A program made the position numbers and the translations under genes. From contig JABMLP010000024.1 of the NCBI GenBank assembly GCA_013176395.1, forward strand, positions 558,001 through 622,000: 64,000 bases of DNA. The letters run 5' to 3'. The notes below the pieces were generated by a model, which saw only the letters and a list, made by a program, of their open reading frames with translations, had not been told where the DNA came from and searched no databases. The DNA is from Venturia oleaginea (taxonomy: Eukaryota; Ascomycota; Dothideomycetes; Venturiales; Venturiaceae). Positions 10,103 through 59,659 of this stretch are shown one piece after another (within the stretch, counting starts at the first letter, position 1; each line of letters starts with the position of its first letter).

Positions 10103-12025
10103 CTACGAACAAACATCAACCCTAACAACACTCGGATCATGATCACTCCCCTTCCCCTCCGCCCCAACCCACGTATTAACATGCAAATGCTCCACCCCAC
10201 CCCCTTGCACCTCAACCATCTCACTAACAAAAACATGATCCAACATCTGACACTTGCCATCATACAAATACGTATACCTCTCCAAATCCGGCACACCTGC
10301 CACCTCATCCACATCAACCAATCCACTCCCCTCCACAAAATACCGGAGTGGTTTCGCAAACGCGAATTCATTGAAATCGCCCGCTGCGATGATCTTGGCT
10401 GAGGGGTCGAGGGTGAGGATTTCCTTGATGAAAGAGGCTGTTACGTTGGCTTGGAGGATGCGTTGCTCTATGCCGCCGTTGACGGGTGGTCGGGCGTCAC
10501 CTTGGAGGGAAGAAGATCCACCCTTGGAAGCAAAGTGGACGTTTACGGTGAAGAAATTACTAACCGGGGAAGAGAGCGTTTCCCACTCTGCGACTATGGG
10601 CTTGCGAGATGCGTCCCACGCCTCGTTAGCAGGGTCGATGCGGCCGGGGTTGTATTTGAGTGTTGGACCGGAGTAGGTAGAGATAATGGCATTGGCGTCG
10701 AGACTTGAGCCGGGGTTAGGATCTCGGAGACGGAGGATGAGTGGGTTGTAAAGGTATGCAACTCTGATGTTTCCGCCTGGTTCGCCGCCGTCTTGATCAT
10801 CGGATGGGCTGATGGTGGTATAGTTGTAGGTGACATTACTCAAAGCTTCGATGGCGTTGATCAAAGTTGTAAGCGTAAAGTCATGCATCCACTACGTCAT
10901 CATTTGTAGCACCATTGTTGTCTTGGATTTCCTGTAGGAATATGAGATCAGGTGAGTTCATGTAGTTGACGATGTGCTCTGCAATCTTTGGAAGATGAGT
11001 CGAGTTCGGCGTCAAGTTTGCAACATTGTAATCACCTAGGGTGAGGCCGGAACATGATTTGCTGGACACAAGACTTGTAGCGGGTGGAAGTGCTGGCTCA
11101 AGGGAACCTTTGATCTTAATGGCGGTGAGGGGGACGATGCGATAAAAGTTGAAGTCCCACCTGACAATTCCCACGATGTCCTCGAGAGAGTCGCCGAGTT
11201 TAGTGGTCTCAGGGTTCATAGTGCCATCCAGTGGTGAGCCGATTATAATAGCCTCCGGGTTACTATCTGGTCTTTTGTAAGCAGCAGTCTCAAAGTGCTT
11301 GATTTGTCGGGTCTACCTTTGTCCGTCATTGTCAATCCACCGCGAACGTTTCTTCCAGTCACAGGCCAATCCCCTGTCACCCACGTGTCTTGGACACTCG
11401 GAGAACTCGACACCGTGGTTGGCTGTGAAAGAGCAGTAACCCCCTTGATGACCACCAATTCTCCGCTCAAGCTCTCCCAAAAGTCCATCTCGTACAGGCT
11501 AGGCTCGAGTGATGGATTCAAGACGGAAATCAGACTTTTGTTGTTGGGGACCGCAAGCACATCACCTTCATCAAGTAAGGAGAACTGTGTCGTCGGTGGA
11601 AGACGACCATTTTCTCCAACTAGCACGGGCTCTACCGAATTGTTGCTCGATATCTTCCGAACATTGCGTGGACTGGTGAGTTCCGTAGTGTAAATTGCTG
11701 CAGCGTTCACTCGATATTCCGTGATGCGACCATCGAGCACAATCCGATCTCCTACTGTGAAATTGGAACCGATGCTACTGCTGAAAACCAGGAGAGAGTT
11801 GGATGTCGCATCACTCCCATTCGAAATTGGGGAGCGAAGGTAGAGGCCGGTGGTGGCTTTCGCTGTGAGGATTCCAGTTACGTTACTAACACTTTGGTCC
11901 TGATACGGCGAATGATATCTTCCTCCCGTGATCTCAGTGATCTCGAGAGCAGTAGCCGGCAAAAGACGGGAGATGGTAATTGAGAAGCTGTAGACCCATA
12001 TTGAGAGCCTCATCGTGATCGTCAA
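10103..12025 (-). CDS. Secreted endonuclease/exonuclease/phosphatase (EEP) family protein, apparent one-base frameshift
   Basis: Exon 1 (12025-11317) begins with a hydrophobic leader (start 12025, or 12013 for MRLSIWVYSFSITISRLLP) and encodes an N-terminal OB-like region. A 50-nt intron (11316-11267, acceptor CCAG) restores DKDSNPEAIIIGSPLDG. The EEP core follows: GDYNVANLTP, then DLIFLQEIQDNNG (catalytic Glu), later AGDFNEFAF and the terminal SDHDPSVVRVD (catalytic His). Many N-glycosylation sequons fit secretion. At about 10886 the frame must shift by one: GATNDDVVDA ends at TGA while the overlapping frame continues DFTLTTLINAIEAL, a conserved stretch. An intron here would delete it. The enzyme type is like bacterial/fungal extracellular nucleases, but the substrate is not known. 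The gene may be a recent pseudogene or contain an assembly error. Confidence 0.78.
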
Positions 12026-14919: not shown

Positions 14920-15979
14920 TCACAATTCCTCCTCCACCTCTCTAACCCACTCCAACAACCCCTCCTCCGGCCCCCTCACAACCGCCCCCACAGGCACCTC
15001 AATATCCCTCCATCTCTCCAACGTAGCCACATTCCTCTCCCTCTGCCACTCAAAAATACCATCATGATCCACAAATTTCCTCTGAATCGAAAGATCGGGA
15101 AACGGATTCCCCTGCGTCTCAACCCAATAAATCGTAATGACACCCGTGCTTGGTTGACACAGTAGGTTTTGCAGGACAATGTGTAAACAATGCGCCAGAT
15201 GGACTTTGGAGATGCGAGGGAGATTGATGTGAGAGCTCTATTTGGGCCGTAGTAGTGATCGAAGTAGGCATGTTTGCGGATGGCGTTGAGGCAGTGGAGG
15301 GTATGTTGGGTATCTATTTCAGCTAGGTGGGCGTTGGATCCTTGACCTGATTGTTCGTTAGCTAGTCTTCTTTTGCTATCATGGAGGAGTAGGGCTAGTA
15401 CTTACCCCATGATTCTGGAGCTTTTACGACTTGTGAAGGATCCTTGCCCAGTCTTGTTACTTCATCGGCGGTGATTGTGAAGATGCCGATGTCGGATATG
15501 GCGTCCCATGCTGCATCGAGAGCATCAGACGGCTCTTGTCTGAATATGGAATGAGATGTGTTGAAGAGAAATCCGTCTACTGCGTGAGTATGGAAAGGCA
15601 AATCGAGACGGTCTAGCAGGGGAGCTTGAAATGTGTGAGTGGGCGGCTGTAGTGCAATTGAGAGCTAAGATTACTGACAGAATGAATTGATCTCTTTGAT
15701 ATTACTGTTGATGGAACCGGTCTTCCTCGCAAGAATATAATCTATCTTCAGAAGAGAAATTGTTGAGACGATGAAAAGAAGGATGTTCAGGAGGCAGAAC
15801 AGTGGTAGTAAAAAAGTGAGTCGACGTCTAGGTTTCTCCGCAATTTGGAAATCAAGTTCCTCCTAGTTGTGGAATTTCAGCAAGAATAAAGGGTGCTTTG
15901 CGATAAAACATACCCGGGGGGCTTTACTATTGAGTAATCCATACCTCACATCGTTTGAGTCTCTGGACCCTGAAGCCAT
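14920..15979 (-). CDS. UstYa-like (DUF3328) oxidase, probable RiPP-modifying enzyme, with a one-base frameshift
   Basis: The start is at 15979 (MASGSRDSNDVRYGLL). An intron 15913-15863 precedes a membrane segment (LTFLLPLFCLLNILLFIVSTI). A probable second intron precedes PLLDRLDLPFHTHAV, and a third (GTAAGT donor near 15409) joins APESWG to QGSNAHLAEID. The first metal-binding HxxHC motif is QHTLHCLNAIRKH. The second, HLAHCLHIVLQNLLC, followed by ITIYWVETQGNPFPD, lies in the neighbouring frame; a single missing base just after HYYGPN (about 15245) explains the shift. The second frame runs to the TGA at 14920-14922. UstYa-family proteins are membrane-anchored oxidases that cyclise tyrosine-containing core peptides in ustiloxin, phomopsin and asperipin pathways. 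The gene is divergent from the repeat precursor at 16959, the usual pairing. It is either a recent pseudogene or carries a sequence error. Confidence 0.75.
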
Positions 15980-16958
15980 AGCGAAGATGTGAAGGAATAG
16001 AGCAAGCAGTGCAAGAAGCTCGCTGGGTCGAATTTAGCTTGGGGTGATTAGATAGATTACAAGAAAGCATATGTACTGATTTATGAAGTGCTAAGACGTA
16101 TCCCGCCTTTTTGGCTGACTTTGTCCTACTTTATGACATCCAAAACCTTAAATTGCTCACCAATAAGATGAAGATTGAATATCGTCCAGTCGGTCGAAAA
16201 GTCTACAGTTCTATCAGTAGTGCCTCGGATGCATCGGATCGAAGGCATGCTTATGGTCGGACAGCAGTAGACTTTGCCACCGGGTCACATCAGCTCGGTT
16301 GACTTTCGAGGCCCGATTGTGTAACATTTCGTGTTGGTCCGGGAGCTTCAAACGTTGAAAGAAGAATTCAATATCATGAGTGATATGACGATCCATGAGA
16401 GCTCTGAATACGCGTGTGATATTGTGCTGATGGGATCGGAGGTCAGAGCATTGTGTGCTTCCTCGAAAAGTATGAAGCTTTCCAACGCCACTTGGTGACC
16501 TTTACGTCATGCCTTTGACGCTACATTTTGCTTTATGAATGCAACGATGTGGTATTCTTCCTTGTTTCGCTTACTGATAATTGATACAGAAACTGGAGAT
16601 GAGCGTTTTCTCGCCGCAGTAAGAGGTACAGTGAGCTGTTCATGATCGCGTCTTGAGAATCTTAGAGATCTACACGTAACACGGTAAAGCGTTACGTTGT
16701 CCACTCACCGACAAAAAACTACGTTGGCTGGATGTATGGCTCTCTTTGTCGCCAAAAAAGTGCGGTCAGCGCATTGCTGCGTATGAGTTTTCTCAGTCCG
16801 TATGAACCTCGAAAATGCAGGACCTGGCCGCGGTTTTGGGATACTGCAAGCATTGCTGAGCATAAAGAAGCACGTTTTCCCACTTTGTATTAACCATACC
16901 AGCACATCTCATTTCACCTGACGAACCTCTTCTTCAAGACTTAAACACCATAGCCAAT
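15980..16958. promoter_or_regulatory. Shared divergent promoter region of the UstYa-like gene and precursor gene
   Basis: The 979 bp between the two opposed start codons contain no convincing ORF and should carry both promoters. I did not find a TATA box or palindromic regulator site that I would defend. Confidence 0.4.
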
Positions 16959-17356
16959 ATGAAGCCTGCAAAATACATTGTCATCATGGCCTTCCTCGCC
17001 ACCAGCACTCTCGCTGGCCCAATCCCAGTCAATCGCGAACGAGCGGCTTCTTGTGATGTGTGCTCCTAGAAGAATTTGTCAACAATCCAAGCTGTATCTG
17101 ACTCTCCTTAGGACCAAGTCAGGCTTACTGCGCCGATTCCAACAACCCTTAACTTCCAGAGAAACATGCAGAGGCCTATCAAGGCTTCAACAACAAGGTC
17201 AGCAAGGGGAAGCGTGCAGAAGCCTATCAAGGCTTCAATAACAAGGTCAGCAAGGAGAAGCGTGCAGAGGCCTATCCAATCTATAACAACTCCGTCAGCA
17301 AGGAAAAGGAAAAGCGCACAGTGGCTTATCCAAGCTATAACAATTCGGTGGAGTGA
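16959..17356 (+). CDS. Putative Kex2-processed RiPP (dikaritin-like) precursor peptide
   Basis: Exon 1 (16959-17057) encodes a signal peptide (MKPAKYIVIMAFLATSTLAG, followed by PIPVNRERAASCD). A downstream exon ending at the TGA 17354-17356 encodes four repeats of the type AEAYQGFNN-KVSKxKR, the later ones being AEAYPIYNN and VAYPSYNN, separated by Kex2 sites (GKR, EKR, EKEKR). Differences between repeats are almost all synonymous in this frame (GAG/GAA, AAC/AAT, CGT/CGC, GCC/GCT), which shows it is the translated one. Secretion leader plus Kex2-spaced tyrosine cores is the architecture of UstA-type precursors. The splice is unsettled. Donor GTGTGC at 17058 is phase 0. The best-looking acceptor (CTTAG ending 17111) gives the wrong frame, whereas the weaker CAGAG ending 17161 restores it. 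A degenerate fifth repeat with a stop (QAY..ADSNN) precedes at 17121-17150. Mating-factor precursors have a similar build but Trp/Cys-rich cores, unlike these. Confidence 0.68.
17168..17356 (+). repeat. Core-peptide tandem repeats of the precursor
   Basis: Units lie at 17168-17215, 17216-17263 (48 bp each), 17264-17317 (54 bp, longer EKEKR spacer) and 17318-17353 (last, no spacer). Two unit types exist: YQGFNN twice and YPxYNN twice. Confidence 0.85.
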
Positions 17357-18224
17357 GGCACACGAGGTCTTTTGAGGCCGTGAGGTGTGCGTTTTAGCCA
17401 AGCCTTGCGAGGATGAGATAAAATTGCAGAGATGGAATTTGAATTCGATCGTCCGGTCATTGAAGAGTATGTTGTTTTTGGTGGAAAATAGTCCATGGTA
17501 GTGTAATCGAGTATGCTCCAATCTGATATCATTTATCCTTGTGATGGTCGAATTCAAACTTCTCTTGGTAGCGATATCATGGCCGTCTAAGGGGAATGAT
17601 ACTGTAGGCAATTTGTTATTCATCTTTGGATATCCGGTGGCAATGGGAATGAAGGTGAGGGGACTGAAGCGTGAGGTTGGAGTTAGAGGAGAGTGGGAGG
17701 TTACTATAGTTCTAGGGGTCTTCGTCTGGAGCATATGATTGGCTGAATTGGCGCCTTCCAGCCGACCTCTTTCAGGCCTTGATGGTGTTACTCGCAGGCT
17801 GAACTTTGAAGCAAATGTCAAATGTTCGCTGTATATCCGACCATAAGAAATACTGTGACTCGATAGAAAAGACTCCCACAGAGTCTCGCTCATTCCTCCC
17901 ACCACGGCCGAACCAACGAAGTCTTCCGATCCCTCCCCCTCCCCCTCACCCTCACCCTTATCCTCACCCAAATCTACAGCCCCGCCTTCCCCGTTGGCCA
18001 TAGCCACCAAGCTCATAACTGCGAGCGCTCTTCTCTGGGACCCCAAATACACAAACTGGTATATACAACAGCACACTGAATGTTCCCAACCCCGTCTCAC
18101 ATAATAACATTCTAGGAGGCCTCCTCCTGGCACTCTCAAGCCCACCCAAGTCCTCTCACAGCACGACCGAACAGACTCTACCATCAGCGTACGCGACCTC
18201 GGCGGCCCGTCAGAAGTAGCTGTC
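17357..18224. other. Intergenic, with C-rich simple sequence near 17930-17970
   Basis: About 870 bp between the precursor and PHO85. It contains a (CCCTCAC)-like pyrimidine tract. A long minus-strand frame crosses it, but it also runs antisense through the precursor repeats and has no family signature, so it is treated as spurious. The right end must carry the PHO85 promoter. Confidence 0.55.
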
Positions 18225-19297
18225 ATGGACAACAAGAGGACTCCGAGTTCCTTCCAGCAGCTTGAGAAGCTCGGTGAAGGAACCTATGCTACCGTGTGTA
18301 TATCCTGGGCCTATATTTCACACGGCATTAACACCACTCACAGGTCTTCAAAGGTCGCAACCGCCAGACGGGCGAGTTCGTCGCCTTGAAAGAAATCCAC
18401 CTCGACTCCGAGGAGGGCACCCCGAGTACCGCCATTCGAGAGATATCGCTCATGAAAGAGCTCAAACACGAAAACATCGTCTCCCTCCACGATGTCATCC
18501 ACACCGAGAAAAAGCTCATGCTCGTCTTCGAGTTCATGGACAAGGATCTGAAGAAGTACATGGACTCCAGAGGCGATCGAGGCGCCTTAGACCCAGTCAC
18601 GATCAAGAGCTTCATGTGGCAGCTGCTGAAGGGAATTGCATTCTGTCATGAGAACCGTGTTCTGCACAGAGATCTGAAGCCTCAGAACTTGCTCATCAAC
18701 ACCAAGGGACAGCTAAAATTGGCCGATTTTGGTCTTGCAAGAGCTTTTGGAATTCCCGTCAACACTTTCTCCAACGAAGTCGTCACACTATGGTATCGCG
18801 CCCCGGATGTGCTTCTCGGTTCGCGAACATACAACACAAGCATCGACATCTGGTCCGCTGGATGTATCATGGCAGAGATGTACACGGGTCGCCCTCTCTT
18901 CCCTGGAACCACGAACGAGGACCAACTCCAGAAGATCTTCCGCCTCATGGGCACACCGTCCGAGCGCACTTGGCCTGGCATCTCGCAGTTCCAAGAGTAC
19001 AAGTCAAACTGGCCCGTCTTTGCTACTCAAGACCTTAGAGTTCTTCTCCCACAAATCGACCCAGTCGGTTTACAGCTTCTGGGCAGCATGCTTCACGTCC
19101 GCCCAGAACAGAGAGTCAGTGCTGCAGATTCGCTCAACCATCCTTGGTTCCAAGAATTCGCCGCTACAGAACGAGGTGGTCAACAGAGGCTCCCACCAGC
19201 ACCTATGCAGCCATATGCTCATCAACAGCAGCATCAACAGCACCAGCAAGCGCCACTTCCAGGGGGATACCAAATGCGTCAAGGCGGTGGATATTAG
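18225..19297 (+). CDS. PHO85: Cyclin-dependent protein kinase PHO85
   Basis: Exon 1 (18225-18293) and exon 2 (18344-19297), split by a 50-nt intron inside the glycine-rich loop (LGEGTYAT / [18 protein letters not shown]), encode 340 residues. Visible kinase elements: the catalytic Lys in VALKEI, the cyclin-binding helix [14 protein letters not shown] (the variant typical of Pho85/Cdk5), [12 protein letters not shown] with the catalytic Asp, DFGLARAFG, the activation loop to [11 protein letters not shown], and [12 protein letters not shown]. The C-terminus has a Gln/His-rich extension after the kinase fold. Pho85 pairs with several Pcl cyclins to control phosphate signalling, glycogen metabolism and the cell cycle. 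The gene looks intact. Confidence 0.96.
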
Positions 19298-21840: not shown

Positions 21841-23574
21841 TCAATGTCTTCTCTTTTCGTCTCCTGTAATCCTTGATTCTCCCTCGGGAGCCGGAGGAGG
21901 ATTATATCCAGGTCTAGGTCCGTTGATAGGCGGTAGATCTTGACCAACGGCATCTTCATAACTTGGTGGCGCTTCTTCGTAAGGTGGACCTTGAGGCTGC
22001 TGTGGCGCACTGCTTGGCCCTTGTTGCGCCGCATAGGTCGGAAGTTTCGAACCAGATGGGCCAGGACCTTGAGTGATTGCTCCGACAGGGGCAGAGTCCA
22101 TTCGCTTGATGAGGTCTGGTGGAGGTGCTATTCCCGAAAATACTTCGCAAGCAATTCGAAGCGGTAGCACGACGTTTTGCTGGTGCTGCAGTTTGAAGTT
22201 AGAGCATGCCAAAATTCTTGGGATCGTCCAACTTACAGCTCCTCCGCGTGGTCCATATGACAGGCCTACAGATACTTGAAGTTCGTACGATCGTGAAATA
22301 TTGCATGTTACAAACGACGGCGCGACAGTGTCTGGAAGTTTATGACCATACCAAAGCTCTTTCGTCAACTCAGTCTCGGTCTCAGCCGGGTCGTTGAAAG
22401 CCCCAATCGGCTGGTTCAAGTTGCTCAAGCTGATGATGACCCAGCTGCTCGTTTCCGTGCGAGTTGCTTCATGCGCTCGGACTTTGGTGAACCCAATCAG
22501 CTCGATCTGAAGTGTCTGCAAATACAGCTCTTCCGAACGTTCATTCAACTGCTTAACAAGGATCTTAATTGGTAAGTCTTGACCACAAGTTAACACGGCA
22601 GGATTTGGTAATCGAGCATCTATGCTGAATCGGGCTGGAGGCAATGAACCTGAAGTTGGAGATGCTGGTGAGCCCGTCTTCTCCTTGTCTTTTAGTAGTG
22701 AGCCAAGTAGACTGCCTTTTCTGTCTGGAAATGCTGGTGGGCGAATGAATTGATGTTGCCGTCTCGCATATACCTCTCCATCCTGCCTCGTTCGTGGTGG
22801 CTCAATTGGCACAAACGTGAGATTTGCAAACTGGTATTCGATATTAGTTCCGACATGTGATAACCAAGGGGAGCATCGTATCAGACTCACAGCTCTGGGA
22901 TTCTCCTTCAACAAAGACGGTCGATTCACAGTAGTTTTCAAAAAATATCGAATTTCAGCCTCTCCAGGGAAATAGATCGAAGGTGGCAATGTTGTTTTGA
23001 CATGCTGAGTTGACGGCCTCGCCACCTCGATTGGCAGCGAGAAGCCTCCAAAATTTAGGCTCGTTGCAAGATTGTTTGAAGTGGTACATGAATTGTTAAA
23101 GGGTAGCTTGAAATGTGTCAGCTGAGATTCAATTGAAGTATCGTTGAAGGATTTAGATTGGGCTTAGTCAGTAGAAGAGGCTGTCATTACCTTGAACTGA
23201 AATGGATATGTATATTGGCCAGGATTGAGAATATATTCCGGTTTTCGGCCCGGAGGTGGTTGCGTGCCTTCGGGCGGAAACACCTGGAGGACTTTGTAGA
23301 GAAGCTAATTTAGATCAGCCAGAGAACAAAATGTCCAGCAATTTAGCATCAAATATACCTTATGAACTTCTAGAACCGGTCGGGGCTCATTCCTGCGGTT
23401 TTGATGAGGATTCTGGCTTGGTGGTGCCAACAATCGGGTCCGAGATTCGGCTTCGAGTTTCACGGTGATATGGGATATTGTCGTACTCGTAGGATTGTGT
23501 AAGATGACTCTCCCAGTGACCAAATCCAAATTTGTGTACTGGCCGTGAGGGTCCAGCTGGAGCTGTACATTCAT
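21841..23574 (-). CDS. Arrestin-like protein with PPxY motif (alpha-arrestin / ART type)
   Basis: Five exons (23574-23359, 23304-23191, 23106-22891, 22830-22237, 22185-21841) are split by introns of 54, 84, 60 and 51 nt. The last two introns are multiples of three and would otherwise be read through. The N-terminal arrestin fold begins LDPHGQYTNLDLVTGRVILH and continues with ISHITVKLEAESRTR, NPGQYTYPFQFKLP and LPPSIYFPGEAEIRYFLK. The C-terminal arrestin half includes CGQDLPIKILVKQL and VAPSFVTCNISRSYELQV. A proline-rich tail holds a PPSYEDA motif. PPxY motifs recruit the WW domains of Rsp5/NEDD4 ubiquitin ligases, so this is likely an endocytic adaptor that targets plasma-membrane transporters. 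The cargo is not predictable; the permease at 27790 is only a positional neighbour. Confidence 0.85.
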
Positions 23575-27789: not shown

Positions 27790-29643
27790 TCACTCCGTCT
27801 TCCTCACATACTCCACCGGTCCCACGTAAACCCTCCTTCCCTTGAAATAGAAGTAGAACATCGATAATCCCATGACACCCACGTACATGACCACACTCCA
27901 ATTCATCTCGTCAACATTTGGCCTCACCACCGGAGGAAACAAGCAGAAGACGAATACCACTGATAGATATAGCACCGAGAAAACATTTACGGCAAAGCCC
28001 GCCTTGCCTAGAGAGAAGCGACGAGGAAGTAGAGGTTCTTTGTTGTATCGTTTGAGACACACGCAGGATATCGAAACGATATAGGAAGAGAGAAGAGCGC
28101 AGACTCCGAGGGAAGTCATGTTGTTGTAGGCAGTTCGAGAGCCGATGTTGATGAGGGAGAGAGATATGGATACCAGCATTGTCAGAAGGACGGAGTTGAG
28201 AGGAATATCCCAGCCGAGAGGAACCTATCAAACACGTTAATGATGTGAATAGTCAATATGCTGAAAGCAAGAACATACGTGTGCGAAGAACTTTGAAAAA
28301 GGCAACCCTTGGTCTCGGGCAAACGCGAAGAGTTGTCGAGATGCCGTTGCGATGTTGGTGATGCAGCAGAATGTAGATAAGATGATGAGTATCGAGGTCA
28401 TGACTGTGGCTCCAGCAATGGATTGTGTCGCATTTACGAAGACCTGGACAAATGGGAAACCGGTCTGCCCAACAGGGGTGTCTTGGATTCCGGAATAATC
28501 TCCCAGACAGAAGCAAAATGCGACCAGCATGGCTAGGCCTAGAGTCCCATTAAAAACTCCGGTGGCAATCATTGCTCTTGGAAGTGTGTATGAAGCATCC
28601 CGTAGCTCTTCGCTCATGTGGGTGGCCGCATCGCTGCCGAGGAGGGCAACAGTCGGGCCAAGGATACCCACCAGGCAAGCCACAGCAGTACTTGACCAAG
28701 GTCGATCACCGGAAGGATCATATTTGCCATTATTGAAGGTGAAGAAAACTTCTTTGGCGGTGGATCTGGTAGGAGATAAGACCACCAATGGAACGATGAT
28801 GGCGAAGAATCCAAGGATATGCAAAACCAGGACCGTCCCCTCTACCAAGGGCAGTTTCCGGGCCAGAAGAGTGTTGAACAAACCACAGAATGTTGCCATC
28901 GCGATGACTATAAGCGTCCCATGCCATGGTTTTGGGTCGTAATGAGGGTTATTGAGAACAACGAGCGATTGTATCTCCGTGCCTGCTAGAAAGGCTTGCG
29001 AAGCCGCACCTGTTTGCCAGCCTATGACACATAGCCAACCGACCACATAACTGAGTATTTTCTGGCATGACTTTGGAGAAAATTCGGATACCCTTGGTCT
29101 GTTAGGAATACCAAAATACTAAGATGGGCTTTGTCCATACCAATGATATTGGCCTCCAGCGGTGGGAGCCCTAACCTTGAGTCAGTAAAAATCAATCAAA
29201 GATATGATGGCTGCACTAACATTGAGGCCATTTCCGCCATGGAGGCGATGACAGCGGACATGCCAACCAGAGTGCCTACGTACACCCAGATGAGACCACC
29301 GCTGCCGCCATTGGAGAGACCAAAGAATGATGTTCTGAGACATGTCAGTACTGATCCCCGCCAAGTATCGTCTTAATTACCCCAGTAGAGTCTCCCACGT
29401 ACTCAGCAAGATCATGCTGAAACCGAAGATACTGAAGAATCCAAAATTTCTCTGCAAGTACCATCTTGTCAGTTAACAGACGCCATCCGAGAGCTGAAAA
29501 CATACTCGCAGCTTCTGTGTCTTGCCCATCCGGTACATGTCCCGCCGGTCAGCGGAGTTCCCATATCGCTTAGATATTTGGCGAAAGTCTTCATCGTCAA
29601 TGCTGCCCAACTCGGCGTGGCTCTCGGTCTTGATTTCATCCAT
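27790..29643 (-). CDS. Amino acid/choline-type permease (APC superfamily)
   Basis: Six exons (29643-29506, 29451-29381, 29334-29221, 29170-29141, 29092-28279, 28224-27790) encode 533 residues. Joins restore RNFGFFSIFGFSMILLSTWE, SMAPTAGGQYHWVSEFSP (the consensus motif of this family, used to fix two acceptors) and VGWLCVIGWQTGAASQAFL. Roughly 12 membrane helices are visible, plus DAATHMSEELRDASYTLPRAM and ASRQLFAFARDQGLPFSKFF, diagnostic for the fungal GABA/choline/polyamine permease group. The soluble N-terminus (MDEIKTESHAELGSIDDEDF) is acidic, as expected for endocytic regulation. The substrate cannot be told from sequence. Confidence 0.9.
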
Positions 29644-49364: not shown

Positions 49365-49679
49365 ATGCCTGTGCTCTCTTCTCCGCAATATCCTTCTTCT
49401 TTTGATCCTGCTATCCACCTGCAAATTGAACACGAACACAACGCGTCCAATACTGTCGCATTCTCCGACGATTTAGAGCAATTGCAGATACACATTCAGC
49501 AAACCACAGCGGAAAAGAGCAAGGAAGGAATAGTGATACAGCATAGGGCCTGGAGAACACCAGACGTCTTTCGTAGCGACGAGGACTATCTGAATGGTAG
49601 CATCTTCTGCCCATTTGAAAGTCTTGAGCTCGCGTTAACACGCAACAGACACACCCGCGAAGCGTGTACCAAAACGTAA
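49365..49679 (+). CDS. Short ORF upstream of CTF18 (uncertain)
   Basis: A 104-codon ATG frame ends 74 bp before the CTF18 start. The sequence (SSPQYPSSFDPAIHLQIEHE; DDLEQLQIHIQQTTAEKSKE) is composition-normal but matches nothing I know. It could be a small gene, a long upstream ORF in the CTF18 leader, or chance. Confidence 0.22.
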   Translation: MPVLSSPQYPSSFDPAIHLQIEHEHNASNTVAFSDDLEQLQIHIQQTTAEKSKEGIVIQHRAWRTPDVFRSDEDYLNGSIFCPFESLELALTRNRHTREACTKT

Positions 49680-49752
49680 CTTTAGTCTTCTGAGGTCTAT
49701 TTCTGACGACACTGGCTCCATTGCTATCCCATCCTCCCCTCCAGTCGCCAAA

Positions 49753-52752
49753 ATGTCCTCTCCTACACAATACCTAGCCATGTCGTCTCCGCCATTGGCG
49801 GACTCTCCTCGAAAGAGGAGGAAAGTAGATGATCAAAGGACCCCGCTCAAGAGCATGAATGGGAACTCTCGCGTTGGAGGCTTCATGGAGGATGATTCTG
49901 ACGACGACGAGCTCAATCTTCCATCCACACTTTTCCACAAGAGGCGCACACTGGAATTGGAACAGGAAGATATCGTGCTCGACTTACCTGGTTTCGAAGC
50001 TACGATACAAAAAGAAAGCGGAAGGCCCAGGCTGGACAGACCAACAGAGCCAGAAACCCTATCGGATTCAGCTTATGCATCGGACAACCAGGATGGATTT
50101 CGACATATCGACGATCTTGAACCTATGGTCCCCGATGCACCACAAAAGGGAGCTCCCACACTCCTGAAAGTCACCACGACTTCTGGCCGAGCAGTCTACG
50201 TAGAAGAGAGGCGGAAAGCTGCTGAAATTTCATATGAGCAACTGATTGCAGCACGATCAATTGTGGTGGAAGGTCAGGCACGGCGGAATTACTACGGAAT
50301 TGACATTCACCAGCTCATGGACGATGCTACACGGGAGGCCGAACTTGACGCACAGAGAACAAAGATCGCACCACCTTCTCCAGTGCGGCAATCTGTAGAG
50401 GCACAAACTGGAAAGAAGAGCAGGACTTTGATGTGGAGCGAGAAATATCGAGCTCGAAAATTCACCGACTTGGTTGGAGATGAGCGTACTCATCGCTCTG
50501 TCTTGCGATGGCTGAAGCACTGGGACCCGATTGTCTTTCCTGGATCAGGTAAACCAAAGTCAAAGGCTGGCAAGGCTGAGGCAGAAGCTGAAGAACGACC
50601 CCACCGCAAAATTTTACTTCTGACTGGACCTCCAGGACTGGGCAAGACGACATTAGCACATGTTTGTGCCAAACAGGCTGGTTACGAAGTTCAAGAAATC
50701 AACGCTAGCGACGAGAGAAGCAGCCAAGTTGTCAAAGGTCGCATCCGAGACATGGTCGGCACCGAGAACGTCAAAGGCAGTGACGTGAGGACAGCGGACG
50801 GGAAGGTCAGAAAAGCAGGGAAACCAGTTTGCGTCATTGTAGACGAGGTCGACGGTGTGGTAGGCGGTGGGAGTGGCGGCGAAGGTGGATTTGTGAAAGC
50901 ACTCATCGATCTCGTCACGTTAGACGCGAAAAACTCGAACGCTAATAGCGCCCAATCGGCGTCGATGGGACCCAAGAAAAAGAACAAAGGCGACAAATTT
51001 CGGCTTCTACGACCTTTGATACTGATTTGCAACGATGTTTATCATCCTTCTCTGCGCCCCCTCCGTCAAAGTAACATGGCCGAAATTGTCCACATCCGGA
51101 AGCCTCCTCTGAACATGGTAGTCTCCCGGGTACATTCCATTTTTGAAAAAGAAGGTGTGCCGAGTGACACTGACGGCATTCGACGTCTGTGTGAAGTGAC
51201 ATGGGGTGTTGGGAGCCGTAAAGAAGGAGGTTCTGCTGATGGAACTGGTGCTGGAGACATACGAAGTGTCATGGTTGTGGGAGAATGGGTGGCTTCGAAA
51301 TTACGAGCATCTGCCGGTCCTCAGCAGACCGAGTGTCCGAGACTGACGAGACGTTGGCTGGAAGAAAACGTGCTAAATGACCTGTCTCACGGCGGAGGTG
51401 GCGCGCGCTCTCTCGGCCGTGGAGGTGCGAGGGAGGTCACTGATCGTGTGTTCCAAGAAGGCGCAGGCTTTCCCAAGACCGATATTCTAGCCACCAAACT
51501 GGCTTCGGCTACTGGACTTGAGAGTACGGGTGTGATTGGTGTCGCTGAAGGCAACAAGAGACGGGCGATGGAGCGATTACGAGAGATGGTCGATATGAGT
51601 GGAGAGACGGACAGGATCGTGACAGGCAAGAGTCTGGTAATTGTCTCAGCAAGACTCACACTAATTCTTAACCTAGATTGCTTCACAGCCTACCCGTCAG
51701 AGCCGATCCAAGACGACACCTTTCTTAGCAAACCAAACGCCGCTTACGACTGGCTGAATTTTCACGACGTCCTCTCATCCCAAGTTCACCTATCACAAGA
51801 ATGGGAGCTTGCATCATATCTCTCCAGTCCTGTCCTAGCATTTCACCATCTCTTCGCCTCCACAAACTCGGCCCGCAAGTCTTTTGCAGTTGCATCGAAT
51901 AACAACAATTGGAGCAAGTTCAATGGTGACAAAGACGCTGAAGTTGAAGCGCCAGCGCCTTTCTCTGGCCCTACTGCTAATTACACGGCTTCTGAAACGC
52001 TGAAAGCTAATGCTGCCACCATCACACTACTCCAGAATTCTTTGTCGCTGCCATTGATGAGGATGTACCGATCGACTGCTTCCATAGCATGTGAGCTCCT
52101 CCCTTACACACTCCGCATGCTTTCGCCAGAAGTCAAGCCCGTCATCATCTACTCCTCCGCTCTTGGCTCAGCAAAATCAGCACCAACAGCATCTGTACGG
52201 AAAGCCTCAGAAAAGGCACTAGTAGCGCGAGCAGTCCAGTGCATGGCAGCCACAGGTGTTCGTTTCGAAAAATCCAGAGTCGAAGTCGAAACAAGATCGG
52301 TGCCAGGTGGATATGTTTTCCGAATGGAACCACCTCTCGATTCTCTGGGAACGATGGATACCCTCAAAAATGGCGAGGCCACGCTCTCTGTCCGCTACGC
52401 CGTCCGTCAAGTTCTAGAAATGGAATGGAAGAAAGAAAACATGAGGCGGGAAGAGGAACTGAGAAGAGCGAGGATGGGTGGTGGCCCAGCTCTTTTTGAT
52501 CTCAAGCCATTGAGTGGGAGGGATAAAGAGGTTGGTAGACTTGATGCTAGAGTGCTTGGTGCAAAGAAGGATTTCTTTGGTAGGACTGTCAAGGTTGCAC
52601 CTCAGTATGATCAGAATGGAGATTTGAAGGATGAAAAGAAGGAAGTGACTGGCAAGGCGGAGGAGAGGAGGGTGTGGGTCAGGTATCAGGAGGGATTTTC
52701 AAATGCGGTTAAGAAAACTATTTCCCTCAGGGAGTTGATGGACGGGCTTTGA
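49753..52752 (+). CDS. CTF18: Chromosome transmission fidelity protein 18 (alternative clamp loader large subunit)
   Basis: A 999-codon frame with a nuclear-signal-like N-terminus (SPRKRRKVDD). The AAA+ module begins LMWSEKYRARKFTDLVGDER, with Walker A LLLTGPPGLGKTTLAHVCAK (residues about 290-310), INASDERSSQVV, Walker B VCVIVDEVDG and sensor text PLILICNDVYHPSLRPLRQ. The long C-terminal RFC-collar and Ctf8/Dcc1-binding region follows and ends SNAVKKTISLRELMDGL. Ctf18-RFC loads PCNA for sister-chromatid cohesion and checkpoint activation. A probable 45-nt in-frame intron (51633-51677, donor GTCTGG, acceptor CCTAG) would remove the odd LVIVSARLTLILNLD segment before CFTAYPSEP. Otherwise the gene is intact. 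Confidence 0.95.
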   Translation: MSSPTQYLAMSSPPLADSPRKRRKVDDQRTPLKSMNGNSRVGGFMEDDSDDDELNLPSTLFHKRRTLELEQEDIVLDLPGFEATIQKESGRPRLDRPTEPETLSDSAYASDNQDGFRHIDDLEPMVPDAPQKGAPTLLKVTTTSGRAVYVEERRKAAEISYEQLIAARSIVVEGQARRNYYGIDIHQLMDDATREAELDAQRTKIAPPSPVRQSVEAQTGKKSRTLMWSEKYRARKFTDLVGDERTHRSVLRWLKHWDPIVFPGSGKPKSKAGKAEAEAEERPHRKILLLTGPPGLGKTTLAHVCAKQAGYEVQEINASDERSSQVVKGRIRDMVGTENVKGSDVRTADGKVRKAGKPVCVIVDEVDGVVGGGSGGEGGFVKALIDLVTLDAKNSNANSAQSASMGPKKKNKGDKFRLLRPLILICNDVYHPSLRPLRQSNMAEIVHIRKPPLNMVVSRVHSIFEKEGVPSDTDGIRRLCEVTWGVGSRKEGGSADGTGAGDIRSVMVVGEWVASKLRASAGPQQTECPRLTRRWLEENVLNDLSHGGGGARSLGRGGAREVTDRVFQEGAGFPKTDILATKLASATGLESTGVIGVAEGNKRRAMERLREMVDMSGETDRIVTGKSLVIVSARLTLILNLDCFTAYPSEPIQDDTFLSKPNAAYDWLNFHDVLSSQVHLSQEWELASYLSSPVLAFHHLFASTNSARKSFAVASNNNNWSKFNGDKDAEVEAPAPFSGPTANYTASETLKANAATITLLQNSLSLPLMRMYRSTASIACELLPYTLRMLSPEVKPVIIYSSALGSAKSAPTASVRKASEKALVARAVQCMAATGVRFEKSRVEVETRSVPGGYVFRMEPPLDSLGTMDTLKNGEATLSVRYAVRQVLEMEWKKENMRREEELRRARMGGGPALFDLKPLSGRDKEVGRLDARVLGAKKDFFGRTVKVAPQYDQNGDLKDEKKEVTGKAEERRVWVRYQEGFSNAVKKTISLRELMDGL

Positions 52753-57832: not shown

Positions 57833-59659
57833 GAGTGTGGACCCCAGATATGACCCACGAAAATCAAACCTCGACATGTGAGAACACTGCGCGCCGCCCA
57901 CGTGCCACTGGCGTTTTAATAAAACCATCTAATAAATCCTCAGAATCCTCATCTTGCTCCTCCGAACTAGTCTCAACTATAATAACTTTGCGTTGGCGCC
58001 CCCGTGGCTTTTTTGCTTCAACGCGCGCCTCCTCCTCGCGGGCTATACGCAACACTTCCGTAGTCGAATAGACCGCAACACCCTCTAATCGAACTCTTTT
58101 ACCCTTTTTAGCCTTCTTCCGCTTCCGCAAAAGTTCGGATTGCTCAGCTATTTGTTTAGCTTGAATTGCAATGGTTGCATTTTGAGTTTCGCATAGGCGT
58201 ATCATACGCTCTGCATAGCGCCGTACCGGCGAAACAACGGCATGGCACTCGCGCAACGACTCTATGAACTTTTTGTTTGATTTTGATAGTTCAACTACTT
58301 CTGGAGGAGAGCTCTGTAGTAAAGAGAGATCGAGAGTAGTTATTGCGCGTGGTGTAATTGGTTGTGGAGCCGGTATAGGTGAGTCTTTCGGAAGCCCTCT
58401 GAGTACTCGCATAGGAAGCGCAGACCATAAGCCGGTGCCACGCCATCCACTAAGGATATTCTCCTTGCTCATAGCCCTTTCGCGTGCACGAGAGAGTAAT
58501 TCAATCCATTCTGAGCGTGGGATGCGCTGTGAACTGAGCCGGGAGATCGCATGCGTTTCGATAGTATGGGCCCGTTTAAACGCCGCAAACACGCCTACAT
58601 CAAGCGGTTGTAGTATATGTGAGCAGTGAGGAGGCATAATTAGGAGATCAATATTATGCTCCATGCAGTAGGCAATAAAATCGACCTGTATATGACTTCC
58701 ATGGCCATCCGCAACAAGTAAACGCTGGCGACCCGCAGCCTTCTCGCGGGTAAGAGGGTCGAAAACATTGATTAACCACGCCAACCCAAGGTTATTCGAG
58801 GTCCAGCCATTCTTGCTTGTTGCAAAGTGCCATCCCAGAGGTGATGATTCATTGATCCATCGCGTATTAACGTCCTGGCCTTTGAATATCAGGAGCGGCG
58901 CCAGCGCTTTGCCTGCGGCATTGATGCACTCAATCACTGTTACCCACTCCTGTTTGCCTCCGATCACCTTGTACTTCTGTGTACTGTCGAGGTGCACAAG
59001 CACCTTCAACGTCTGCTCTTCGCCAATACCAAATCCAGCCTCATCCATATTCCACATATGCGCAGGATCGTACTTATGCTCCTGGAGCATCTCTCCGACT
59101 GCGTCAAACCAGCGTTTTACATGCTCATATGTTGCCCCCTCGTTGCGTACATGCTCTAGCTGACGAGCATATACTCCTGCTATCTCAGGATGTCTTTTTT
59201 GAAAGCGCTGGATCCATTTATCGTTGATAGTGAAGCGTGGGGTGGTAGGTAGGATAAGATGTGACGCGTGCGTGTCGAATATGAATTGCGAGCTCTTTGA
59301 GCATCGGGTTGGTAATATCAGTTCCAGTATTTGTGTATCGCTTAATCCAGCGTACAAGAGTATCTTCTTCCGCGATGGTAAGAATTTGGGTCATTTCGTG
59401 GCTGGTAGAGTTCGTCAAGCCGCCGTTGAGCCTGCGCTGTAGTGTTTTGTTATCAACTTGAAAGAACTTTGCAGCAGCCCTAATAGACGAAAAGTCTTTA
59501 TTTTGTAGTGCATAAATAGCCTTTGATAGATGAACTTCGTAATCCGGCGATTTTTTGGATGATTTTGAAGGCATTGGTGGGGATAACGCGTGTAGCATGC
59601 GCTTTGGAGGATTTTCGTGGGTCATATCTGGGGTTGGGTCATATCTGGGGTCCACACTC
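57833..59659 (-). mobile_element. Complete pogo/Fot1-type DNA transposon with TIRs and TA duplication, transposase frameshifted
   Basis: The element is bounded by TA at 57831-57832 and 59660-59661. The left TIR (57833-57865, GAGTGTGGACCCCAGATATG...) matches the right end read in reverse (59659-59610), except that the right end carries an extra 17-bp unit (CCCCAGATATGACCCAA). The transposase runs leftward. A helix-turn-helix (FSSIRAAAKFFQVDNKTLQR) and CENP-B-type region lie in one frame (59655-59218). The DDD domain lies in another (59357-57864): MWNMDEAGFGIG, LLVADGHGSHIQ and HILQPLDVGVFAAFKRA. The two frames overlap at 59218-59357, so a single indel separates NPMLKELAIHI from HLILPTTPRFTINDKWIQRF. 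The stop codon overlaps the left TIR. Size (1.83 kb) and TA target fit the Tc1/mariner superfamily. The copy is non-autonomous unless the shift is bypassed. Confidence 0.92.

What the first reader, a model, noticed from the sequence alone, without database searches (positions are those of the whole stretch)
14920..17356. Candidate minimal dikaritin-type RiPP locus: UstYa-like oxidase divergent from a Kex2-repeat precursor
Seen: a secreted precursor with four tyrosine-containing repeats (YQGFNN x2, YPxYNN x2) separated by KR sites, opposite a DUF3328 protein with two HxxHC motifs. Known: UstA/UstYa pairs of this layout make ustiloxins, phomopsins and asperipin through Kex2 release and oxidative Tyr cyclisation. 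Inferred: the NN-ending cores would give cyclic peptides with sequences I do not recall from described families. No P450, tyrosinase or peptidase is nearby, so the cluster would be very small.
Basis: partly seen in the sequence, partly recalled or inferred. Interest (0 to 1): 0.88.

Follow-up and report, generated by a model that had tools for sequence, protein, structure and literature searches.

The report
Frame-broken fungal cyclic-peptide gene pair
A fungal gene pair of a well-known kind, a repeat-bearing peptide precursor beside a ring-forming oxidase, is really there, but as assembled the oxidase gene is broken between its two key motifs and the precursor does not splice cleanly, so it is either a recently dead or a misassembled member of a common family.

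Summary
Four Kex2-type repeats (YQGFNN twice, YPIYNN, YPSYNN) lie at 17153-17356 (+), opposite a UstYa/DUF3328 gene at 15979-14920 (-). The nearest relative of that gene is an uninterrupted 297-aa Venturia nashicola protein. (1) The two HxxHC motifs lie in different reading frames; no GT donor lies between them. A Cys found in 4 of 4 database relatives and 14 of 14 paralogue fragments that reach it is Phe here. (2) The signal-peptide-like ORF is in another frame than the repeats; every GT-AG pair that keeps it and all four cores needs an acceptor ending in GAG. Two searches found no homologue of the precursor, and the core words are in no paper of the library searched. The same genome has at least five other Kex2-repeat ORFs within 5 kb of UstYa genes. 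A neighbouring nuclease gene is also frame-broken, so a poorly assembled stretch is a serious rival to real gene death. Best reading: a dikaritin-type (ustiloxin-like) RiPP pair with unrecorded cores, recently inactivated here. It is a new member of a known kind and cannot be filed as a working dikaritin locus as assembled. Interest is low.

The parts
14976..15979 (-). UstYa/DUF3328 gene as it stands: exons 15979-15914, 15862-15679, 15624-15406 and from 15346; 279-aa product that carries only the first motif (HTLHC) and ends out of frame
   Evidence: exons; 51-, 54- and 59-nt introns; PF11807; P0001, Venturia nashicola, 70% identity, 99% of residues 1-195 covered
14920..15237 (-). C-terminal piece of the same UstYa gene, in a different frame, with the second motif (HLAHC); the Cys of the ...KC... 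motif is Phe
   Evidence: PF11807 162-220, E 1.2e-15; 78% to P0001 residues 189-295; Cys in relatives and paralogues
15205..15298 (-). stretch between the two motifs in which the reading frame changes; no GT donor inside it
16959..17069 (+). signal-peptide-like ORF MKPAKYIVIMAFLATSTLAGPIPVNRERAASCDVCS (by eye, not run through a predictor)
17058..17161 (+). one of four GT-AG pairs (donor 17028 or 17058, acceptor ending at 17161 or 17173) that would join the signal-peptide stretch in frame to all four cores; each of the four acceptors ends in GAG
   Evidence: single introns only
17153..17356 (+). Kex2-type repeat frame: AYQGFNN, AYQGFNN, AYPIYNN, AYPSYNN separated by KR sites

Best explanation
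This is a RiPP gene pair of the ustiloxin/dikaritin type. In the ancestor, a secreted precursor was cut by the Golgi protease Kex2 at KR sites into small Tyr-containing peptides (AEAYxxxNN...), and a membrane-anchored UstYa/DUF3328 oxidase closed a ring through the Tyr side chain; both steps are inferred from known members of the class. In this genome the pair is most likely no longer working. The oxidase frame is broken between its two HxxHC motifs and a conserved Cys is gone, and the precursor has no clean in-frame splice. The lesion, if real, is young: the part after the break is still 78% identical to the V. nashicola protein.
For: PF11807 in three pieces. A gene model with three introns of ordinary length up to the break. 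An uninterrupted V. nashicola relative, P0001, which aligns piece by piece at 56, 82, 64 and 78% across one frame change. No GT between the motifs. The Cys that is Phe here is present in 4 of 4 database relatives and, by eye, in 14 of 14 paralogue fragments that reach it, out of 16 other UstYa genes counted; this is a substitution, which an indel error does not explain. Of 35 neighbouring pairs of domain pieces of UstYa, P450 and tyrosinase genes compared by implied inserted length, 30 imply 44 nt or more, as introns would; this break implies 5 nt, the smallest. The repeats and their frame. One Kex2-like P_proprotein match in the genome.
Against: An assembly error would look the same, and no reads could be checked. 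A nuclease gene about 4.3 kb away is also frame-broken at about 10884-10894, so this stretch may be badly assembled. Two other domain pairs also imply short insertions (8 and 10 nt), so such breaks are rare but not unique. Downstream identity is still high. The repeats have no stop in the Kex2 frame.
Confidence: 0.48

Rival explanations
1. The locus is intact and working in the living fungus. The frame breaks are assembly errors in a poorly read stretch (or confined to this strain), and the precursor is spliced normally in the true sequence or uses a weak splice site. It makes cyclic peptides from the YQGFNN/YPIYNN/YPSYNN cores.
For: Frame trouble occurs in up to three genes within about 6.5 kb: the nuclease at about 10884-10894, the oxidase and perhaps the precursor. 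V. nashicola keeps an uninterrupted relative, and the part after the break is still 78% identical to it. The repeats have no stop and an intact KR register. Weak donors may be used here: the DAO gene seems to use one beginning GTTGGC (by eye).
Against: Besides the break, a conserved Cys is lost by substitution. The DAO gene between the two broken genes reads through in the stretches checked (by eye), and long ORFs such as the kinase (18332-19297), the arrestin-like ORF (21841-23163) and 49639-52752 are unbroken.
Confidence: 0.37
2. The repeat gene is an independent Kex2-processed precursor of unmodified (pheromone-like or signalling) peptides, and the broken UstYa gene beside it is unrelated.
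For: 6120 of 7878 known KEP genes have no DUF3328 neighbour (PMC7329392, passages). AEA after KR resembles Ste13-type dipeptides (motif described in PMC6339444, passages).
Against: The two genes are divergent and about 1 kb apart. The cores carry Tyr, as in the cyclised class. The same genome pairs UstYa genes with KEP-like ORFs elsewhere.
Confidence: 0.1
3. The repeats are a non-coding tandem repeat and the Kex2 frame is a coincidence.
For: No homologue of the peptide in two searches. The repeats stay open in another frame too (17112-17375). The signal-peptide ORF is not cleanly joined.
Against: Synonymous changes are most frequent in the Kex2 frame. A Kex2-repeat scan finds 1 in the window and 0 in each of 30 shuffles. 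A UstYa gene is next door.
Confidence: 0.05

Closest known systems
Ustiloxin / phomopsin / asperipin-2a type RiPP loci (dikaritins, ust-RiPS)
   Same: Repeated Tyr-containing cores between KR sites beside a UstYa/DUF3328 gene; asperipin-2a also has just one DUF3328 gene (PMC7329392, passages)
   Different: Cores YQGFNN/YPIYNN/YPSYNN instead of YAIG/YVIG/YVIP (those named in PMC7329392); no tyrosinase or P450 match in the window; oxidase frame broken; precursor not cleanly spliced
Kex2-processed repeat proteins (KEPs) with a DUF3328 gene nearby (1758 of 7878 KEPs in PMC7329392, passages)
   Same: Repeat units of 16-18 aa with KR sites and a DUF3328 gene nearby
   Different: Signal peptide not in frame without a weak splice; last repeat lacks a KR
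Venturia nashicola hypothetical protein E2P81_ATG00944 (P0001)
   Same: 70% identical over residues 1-195 of the window's product; both HxxHC motifs and the Cys in one protein there
   Different: The window gene is frame-broken and lacks the Cys; whether V. nashicola has the precursor beside it could not be looked up

Membership tests
Dikaritin (UstYa-dependent RiPP) locus | UstYa/DUF3328 domain gene | tested here: met
   PF11807 over cut-off in three pieces
Dikaritin (UstYa-dependent RiPP) locus | two HxxHC motifs in the DUF3328 protein (criterion cited in PMC12048977, passages) | tested here: not met
   as assembled, HTLHC and HLAHC are in different frames of exon 4 with no GT between them
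Dikaritin (UstYa-dependent RiPP) locus | precursor with repeated cores between Kex2 sites | tested here: met
   four repeats, KR register
Dikaritin (UstYa-dependent RiPP) locus | signal peptide in frame with the repeats | tested here: inconclusive
   signal-peptide-like ORF is in another frame; only weak splice pairs join it; no signal-peptide predictor or RNA-seq at hand
Dikaritin (UstYa-dependent RiPP) locus | Tyr in the core for ring closure | tested here: met
   Tyr in 4 of 4 cores
Dikaritin (UstYa-dependent RiPP) locus | tyrosinase in the cluster (older five-gene definition, PMC12048977, passages) | tested here: not met
   none of the 25 PF00264 matches is on contig C17; later definitions do not require it
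Dikaritin (UstYa-dependent RiPP) locus | methyltransferase, transporter or peptidase in the cluster (older definition) | not tested
   19 ORFs or ORF pieces of the window were scanned with Pfam, none of the near ones matching such a family; the families were not searched for one by one (an amino acid permease lies at 28237-29118)
Dikaritin (UstYa-dependent RiPP) locus | oxidatively cyclised peptide product | not testable with these tools
   needs LC-MS
Kex2-processed repeat protein (KEP) | at least three similar units separated by KR/RR/KK | tested here: met
Kex2-processed repeat protein (KEP) | secreted | tested here: inconclusive
   see signal peptide row

The most novel reading that the evidence does not exclude
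A working two-gene dikaritin-type locus that turns YQGFNN, YPIYNN and YPSYNN cores into cyclic peptides with a single oxidase, the frame breaks being assembly errors. The cores are in no protein or paper found here.
Probability: 0.27. Interest if true: 0.4.

Novelty: new member of a known kind. Interest (0 to 1): 0.18.

Why it matters
If dead, it is a small example of how RiPP loci of this kind are lost between related fungi, and a caution that six-frame domain hits can make a broken oxidase look whole. If alive, it adds core sequences to a class with many orphan precursors. Neither changes the picture of the class.

Tried and rejected
An intron between the two HxxHC motifs was considered. No GT donor lies there. 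A 44-nt GC-AG stretch (15247-15204) would rejoin the frames, but it would remove residues that are present in P0001 (LPRISK here, LPKISK there) and it has no donor consensus (by eye), so I rejected it.

Single introns from the signal-peptide ORF to the repeats were enumerated, with GT and GC donors. The GT pairs that keep the signal peptide as far as GPIP and all four cores are four: donor 17028 or 17058 with an acceptor ending at 17161 or 17173, every acceptor ending in GAG. Pairs with AAG or CAG acceptors lose part or all of the first core or more. GC donors were listed but are poor by eye. The acceptor with the best branch site and pyrimidine tract by eye (ending at 17111), with the GTGTGC donor, leads into a frame other than the Kex2 frame. 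A two-intron reading was looked at by hand only.

Two protein searches with the precursor found nothing: the repeat piece (199 candidates, E up to 1) and the 97-aa splice model (341 candidates, E up to 10); these reach only relatives that share exact 5-residue words. No second copy was found in the genome: of 4 matches one is the locus itself and three are weak (E 0.75).

The paper search for six core words gave 0 papers (supplementary files not searched). Searches with Venturia, RiPP, UstYa, Kex2 terms gave 49 and 42 papers, of which 15 each were listed; none of the listed titles treats this locus, and most were not opened. PMC7329392 names Venturia once, in the table row of KEP type G-9 (passage; column headings not seen).

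The sigma-70 promoter scan does not apply to a fungus and was ignored. A regular expression for paralogue motifs was too strict and found only the window's own copy; searches replaced it. One search translated several minus-strand hits on the wrong strand; redid them.

The nuclease does not: its two pieces match consecutive parts of the same solved structures (chain residues to 319 and from 325, or to 318 and from 324) in two frames that overlap at about 10884-10894. The odds of real inactivation were lowered and those of an assembly error raised for that reason. I had also called the pair 17058-17161 nearly the only one; there are four such pairs.

Full report
What the window is. It is contig C17:558001-622000 of a 46.1-Mb assembly in 61 contigs. 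The assembly is unnamed. Of the four oxidase relatives found, two bear species names: Venturia nashicola (70%) and Amylocarpus encephaloides (44%). A fungus of or near Venturia is therefore likely; the species was not determined.

The precursor. Window 17153-17356 (+) is open and reads four Tyr-containing units separated by KR: AEAYQGFNN (twice), AEAYPIYNN, TVAYPSYNN. The DNA is a 48-nt tandem repeat. A scan for ORFs with similar fragments between KR sites finds this one in the window and none in 30 shuffled copies (shuffling by 3-base blocks). Codon differences between units are synonymous most often in this frame (21, against 4 and 13), but changed codons are mostly non-synonymous in each frame (31, 39, 35; six overlapping pairs pooled, weak support). 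A signal-peptide-like ORF starts at 16959 (by eye), in another frame. Four GT-AG pairs keep it as far as GPIP and all four cores in frame: donor 17028 or 17058, acceptor ending at 17161 or 17173. All four acceptors end in GAG, which is unusual for fungi (recalled).

The oxidase. PF11807 (UstYa) matches three pieces on the minus strand. Exons 15979-15914, 15862-15679, 15624-15406 and one from 15346 are joined by introns of 51, 54 and 59 nt and give a UstYa product with one membrane-spanning stretch (by eye) as far as YYGPN. Then the frame changes: the second motif, HLAHC, and the rest (15237-14920) are in another frame. Against P0001 the pieces align at 56% (residues 22-85), 82% (84-159), 64% (151-195) and 78% (189-295). 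No GT lies between the motifs, so no GT-AG intron can account for the change. In addition, a Cys near the end (KC in P0001-P0004, 4 of 4) is Phe here. By eye it is Cys in 14 of 14 fragments of other UstYa genes of this genome that reach the position; two of the 16 others do not reach it (my count of genes from the 23 matches).

Is it an assembly fault? Evidence points both ways. For a fault: a nuclease gene of the ExeM/NucH kind, about 4.3 kb away, is also broken. Its pieces 11258-10884 and 10891-10106 match consecutive parts of the same solved structures, in two overlapping frames (family, below its cut-off). Against: the DAO gene lying between reads through in the stretches checked (by eye), the kinase, arrestin-like and 49639-52752 ORFs are long and unbroken, and the Cys loss is a substitution. 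Across the genome, 35 neighbouring pairs of domain pieces (one of them not consecutive, one a duplicate) were compared: 30 imply inserted lengths of 44 nt or more, and five imply less (5 for this gene, 8, 10, 26 and 29, a rough measure). High identity after the break says that the lesion is young or not real.

Surroundings. Neighbours are a DAO-type oxidoreductase, the nuclease, a protein kinase and a GH10 xylanase. Farther out are arrestin-like, amino acid permease, dehydrogenase, DDE-transposase and Kelch/BTB proteins. No P450 or tyrosinase match falls in the window; the nearest P450 match on the contig is at C17:631371, about 56 kb from the precursor (92 of 157 P450 candidates were scored). 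One P_proprotein (Kex2-type) match is on C13.

The same arrangement elsewhere in the genome. Fourteen stretches of 9.9 kb around the 16 other UstYa genes were fetched and scanned. By eye, five hold credible Kex2-repeat ORFs within 5 kb of a UstYa match: L025 (YEDIIRDVSDRETGGVIANK units), L026 (DADAGMSYY), L028 (DDTKYAWYNF), L032 (EPYAYV) and L036 (PLFAKVD). A sixth, L024, has a unit repeated exon by exon. The scan was loose and also flagged ORFs that look like chance. The pairing in the window is therefore one of several in this genome, and of a kind counted in the thousands in fungi (1758 of 7878 KEPs have a DUF3328 neighbour; PMC7329392, passages).

How it would work. Inferred from known members: entry into the secretory pathway, Kex2 cleavage after KR, trimming of AEA, ring closure at Tyr by the oxidase. 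None of these steps is shown here.

Verdict. What it works like: a ustiloxin-type pair. Membership as a working dikaritin locus: not granted, because the two-motif criterion fails as assembled. Recent inactivation is somewhat more likely than an assembly error.

Noticed in passing
window 10884-10894 (-): The ExeM/NucH-like nuclease gene changes reading frame here without room for an intron: its two pieces match consecutive parts of one solved structure. It is a second frame break near the one in the oxidase.
   Followed up: yes
L025 1637-2028 (C9, about 679.1-679.5 kb): About six near-identical 66-nt units encoding KR-YEDIIRDVSDRETGGVIANK beside two UstYa genes: a better-looking RiPP precursor than the one in the window.
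   Followed up: partly
L026, plus-strand ORF of 267 aa (C7, about 77.8-78.6 kb): Kex2-repeat ORF with many DADAGMSYY cores about 2 kb from the UstYa gene with the best Pfam score in the genome.
   Followed up: partly
L024 8807-9698 (C12, about 848.8-849.7 kb): A 190-nt unit repeated 4.7 times in which each copy looks like one exon (VEPSETAVDAVNYVLSLEKSGPGVTAYDDEINSAVPADVLGKR) plus one intron, near two UstYa genes: a repeat protein that seems to grow by exon-plus-intron duplication.
   Followed up: partly
L036 3402-4039 (C5, about 722 kb): PLFAKVDKR-type repeats spread over three reading frames on the minus strand behind a signal-peptide-like start, divergent from a UstYa gene; introns or frame breaks, undecided.
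   Followed up: partly
L028 and L032: Further Kex2-repeat ORFs near UstYa genes, with cores DDTKYAWYNF and EPYAYV.
   Followed up: partly
contigs C19, C41 and C60: Tyrosinase matches on C19 and C41, and P450 matches on C19 and C60, have identical scores: possibly duplicated ends or haplotype copies in the assembly.
   Followed up: no
window 57864-59390: Long open DDE_1 (PF03184) transposase-like frame of 508 aa.
   Followed up: no
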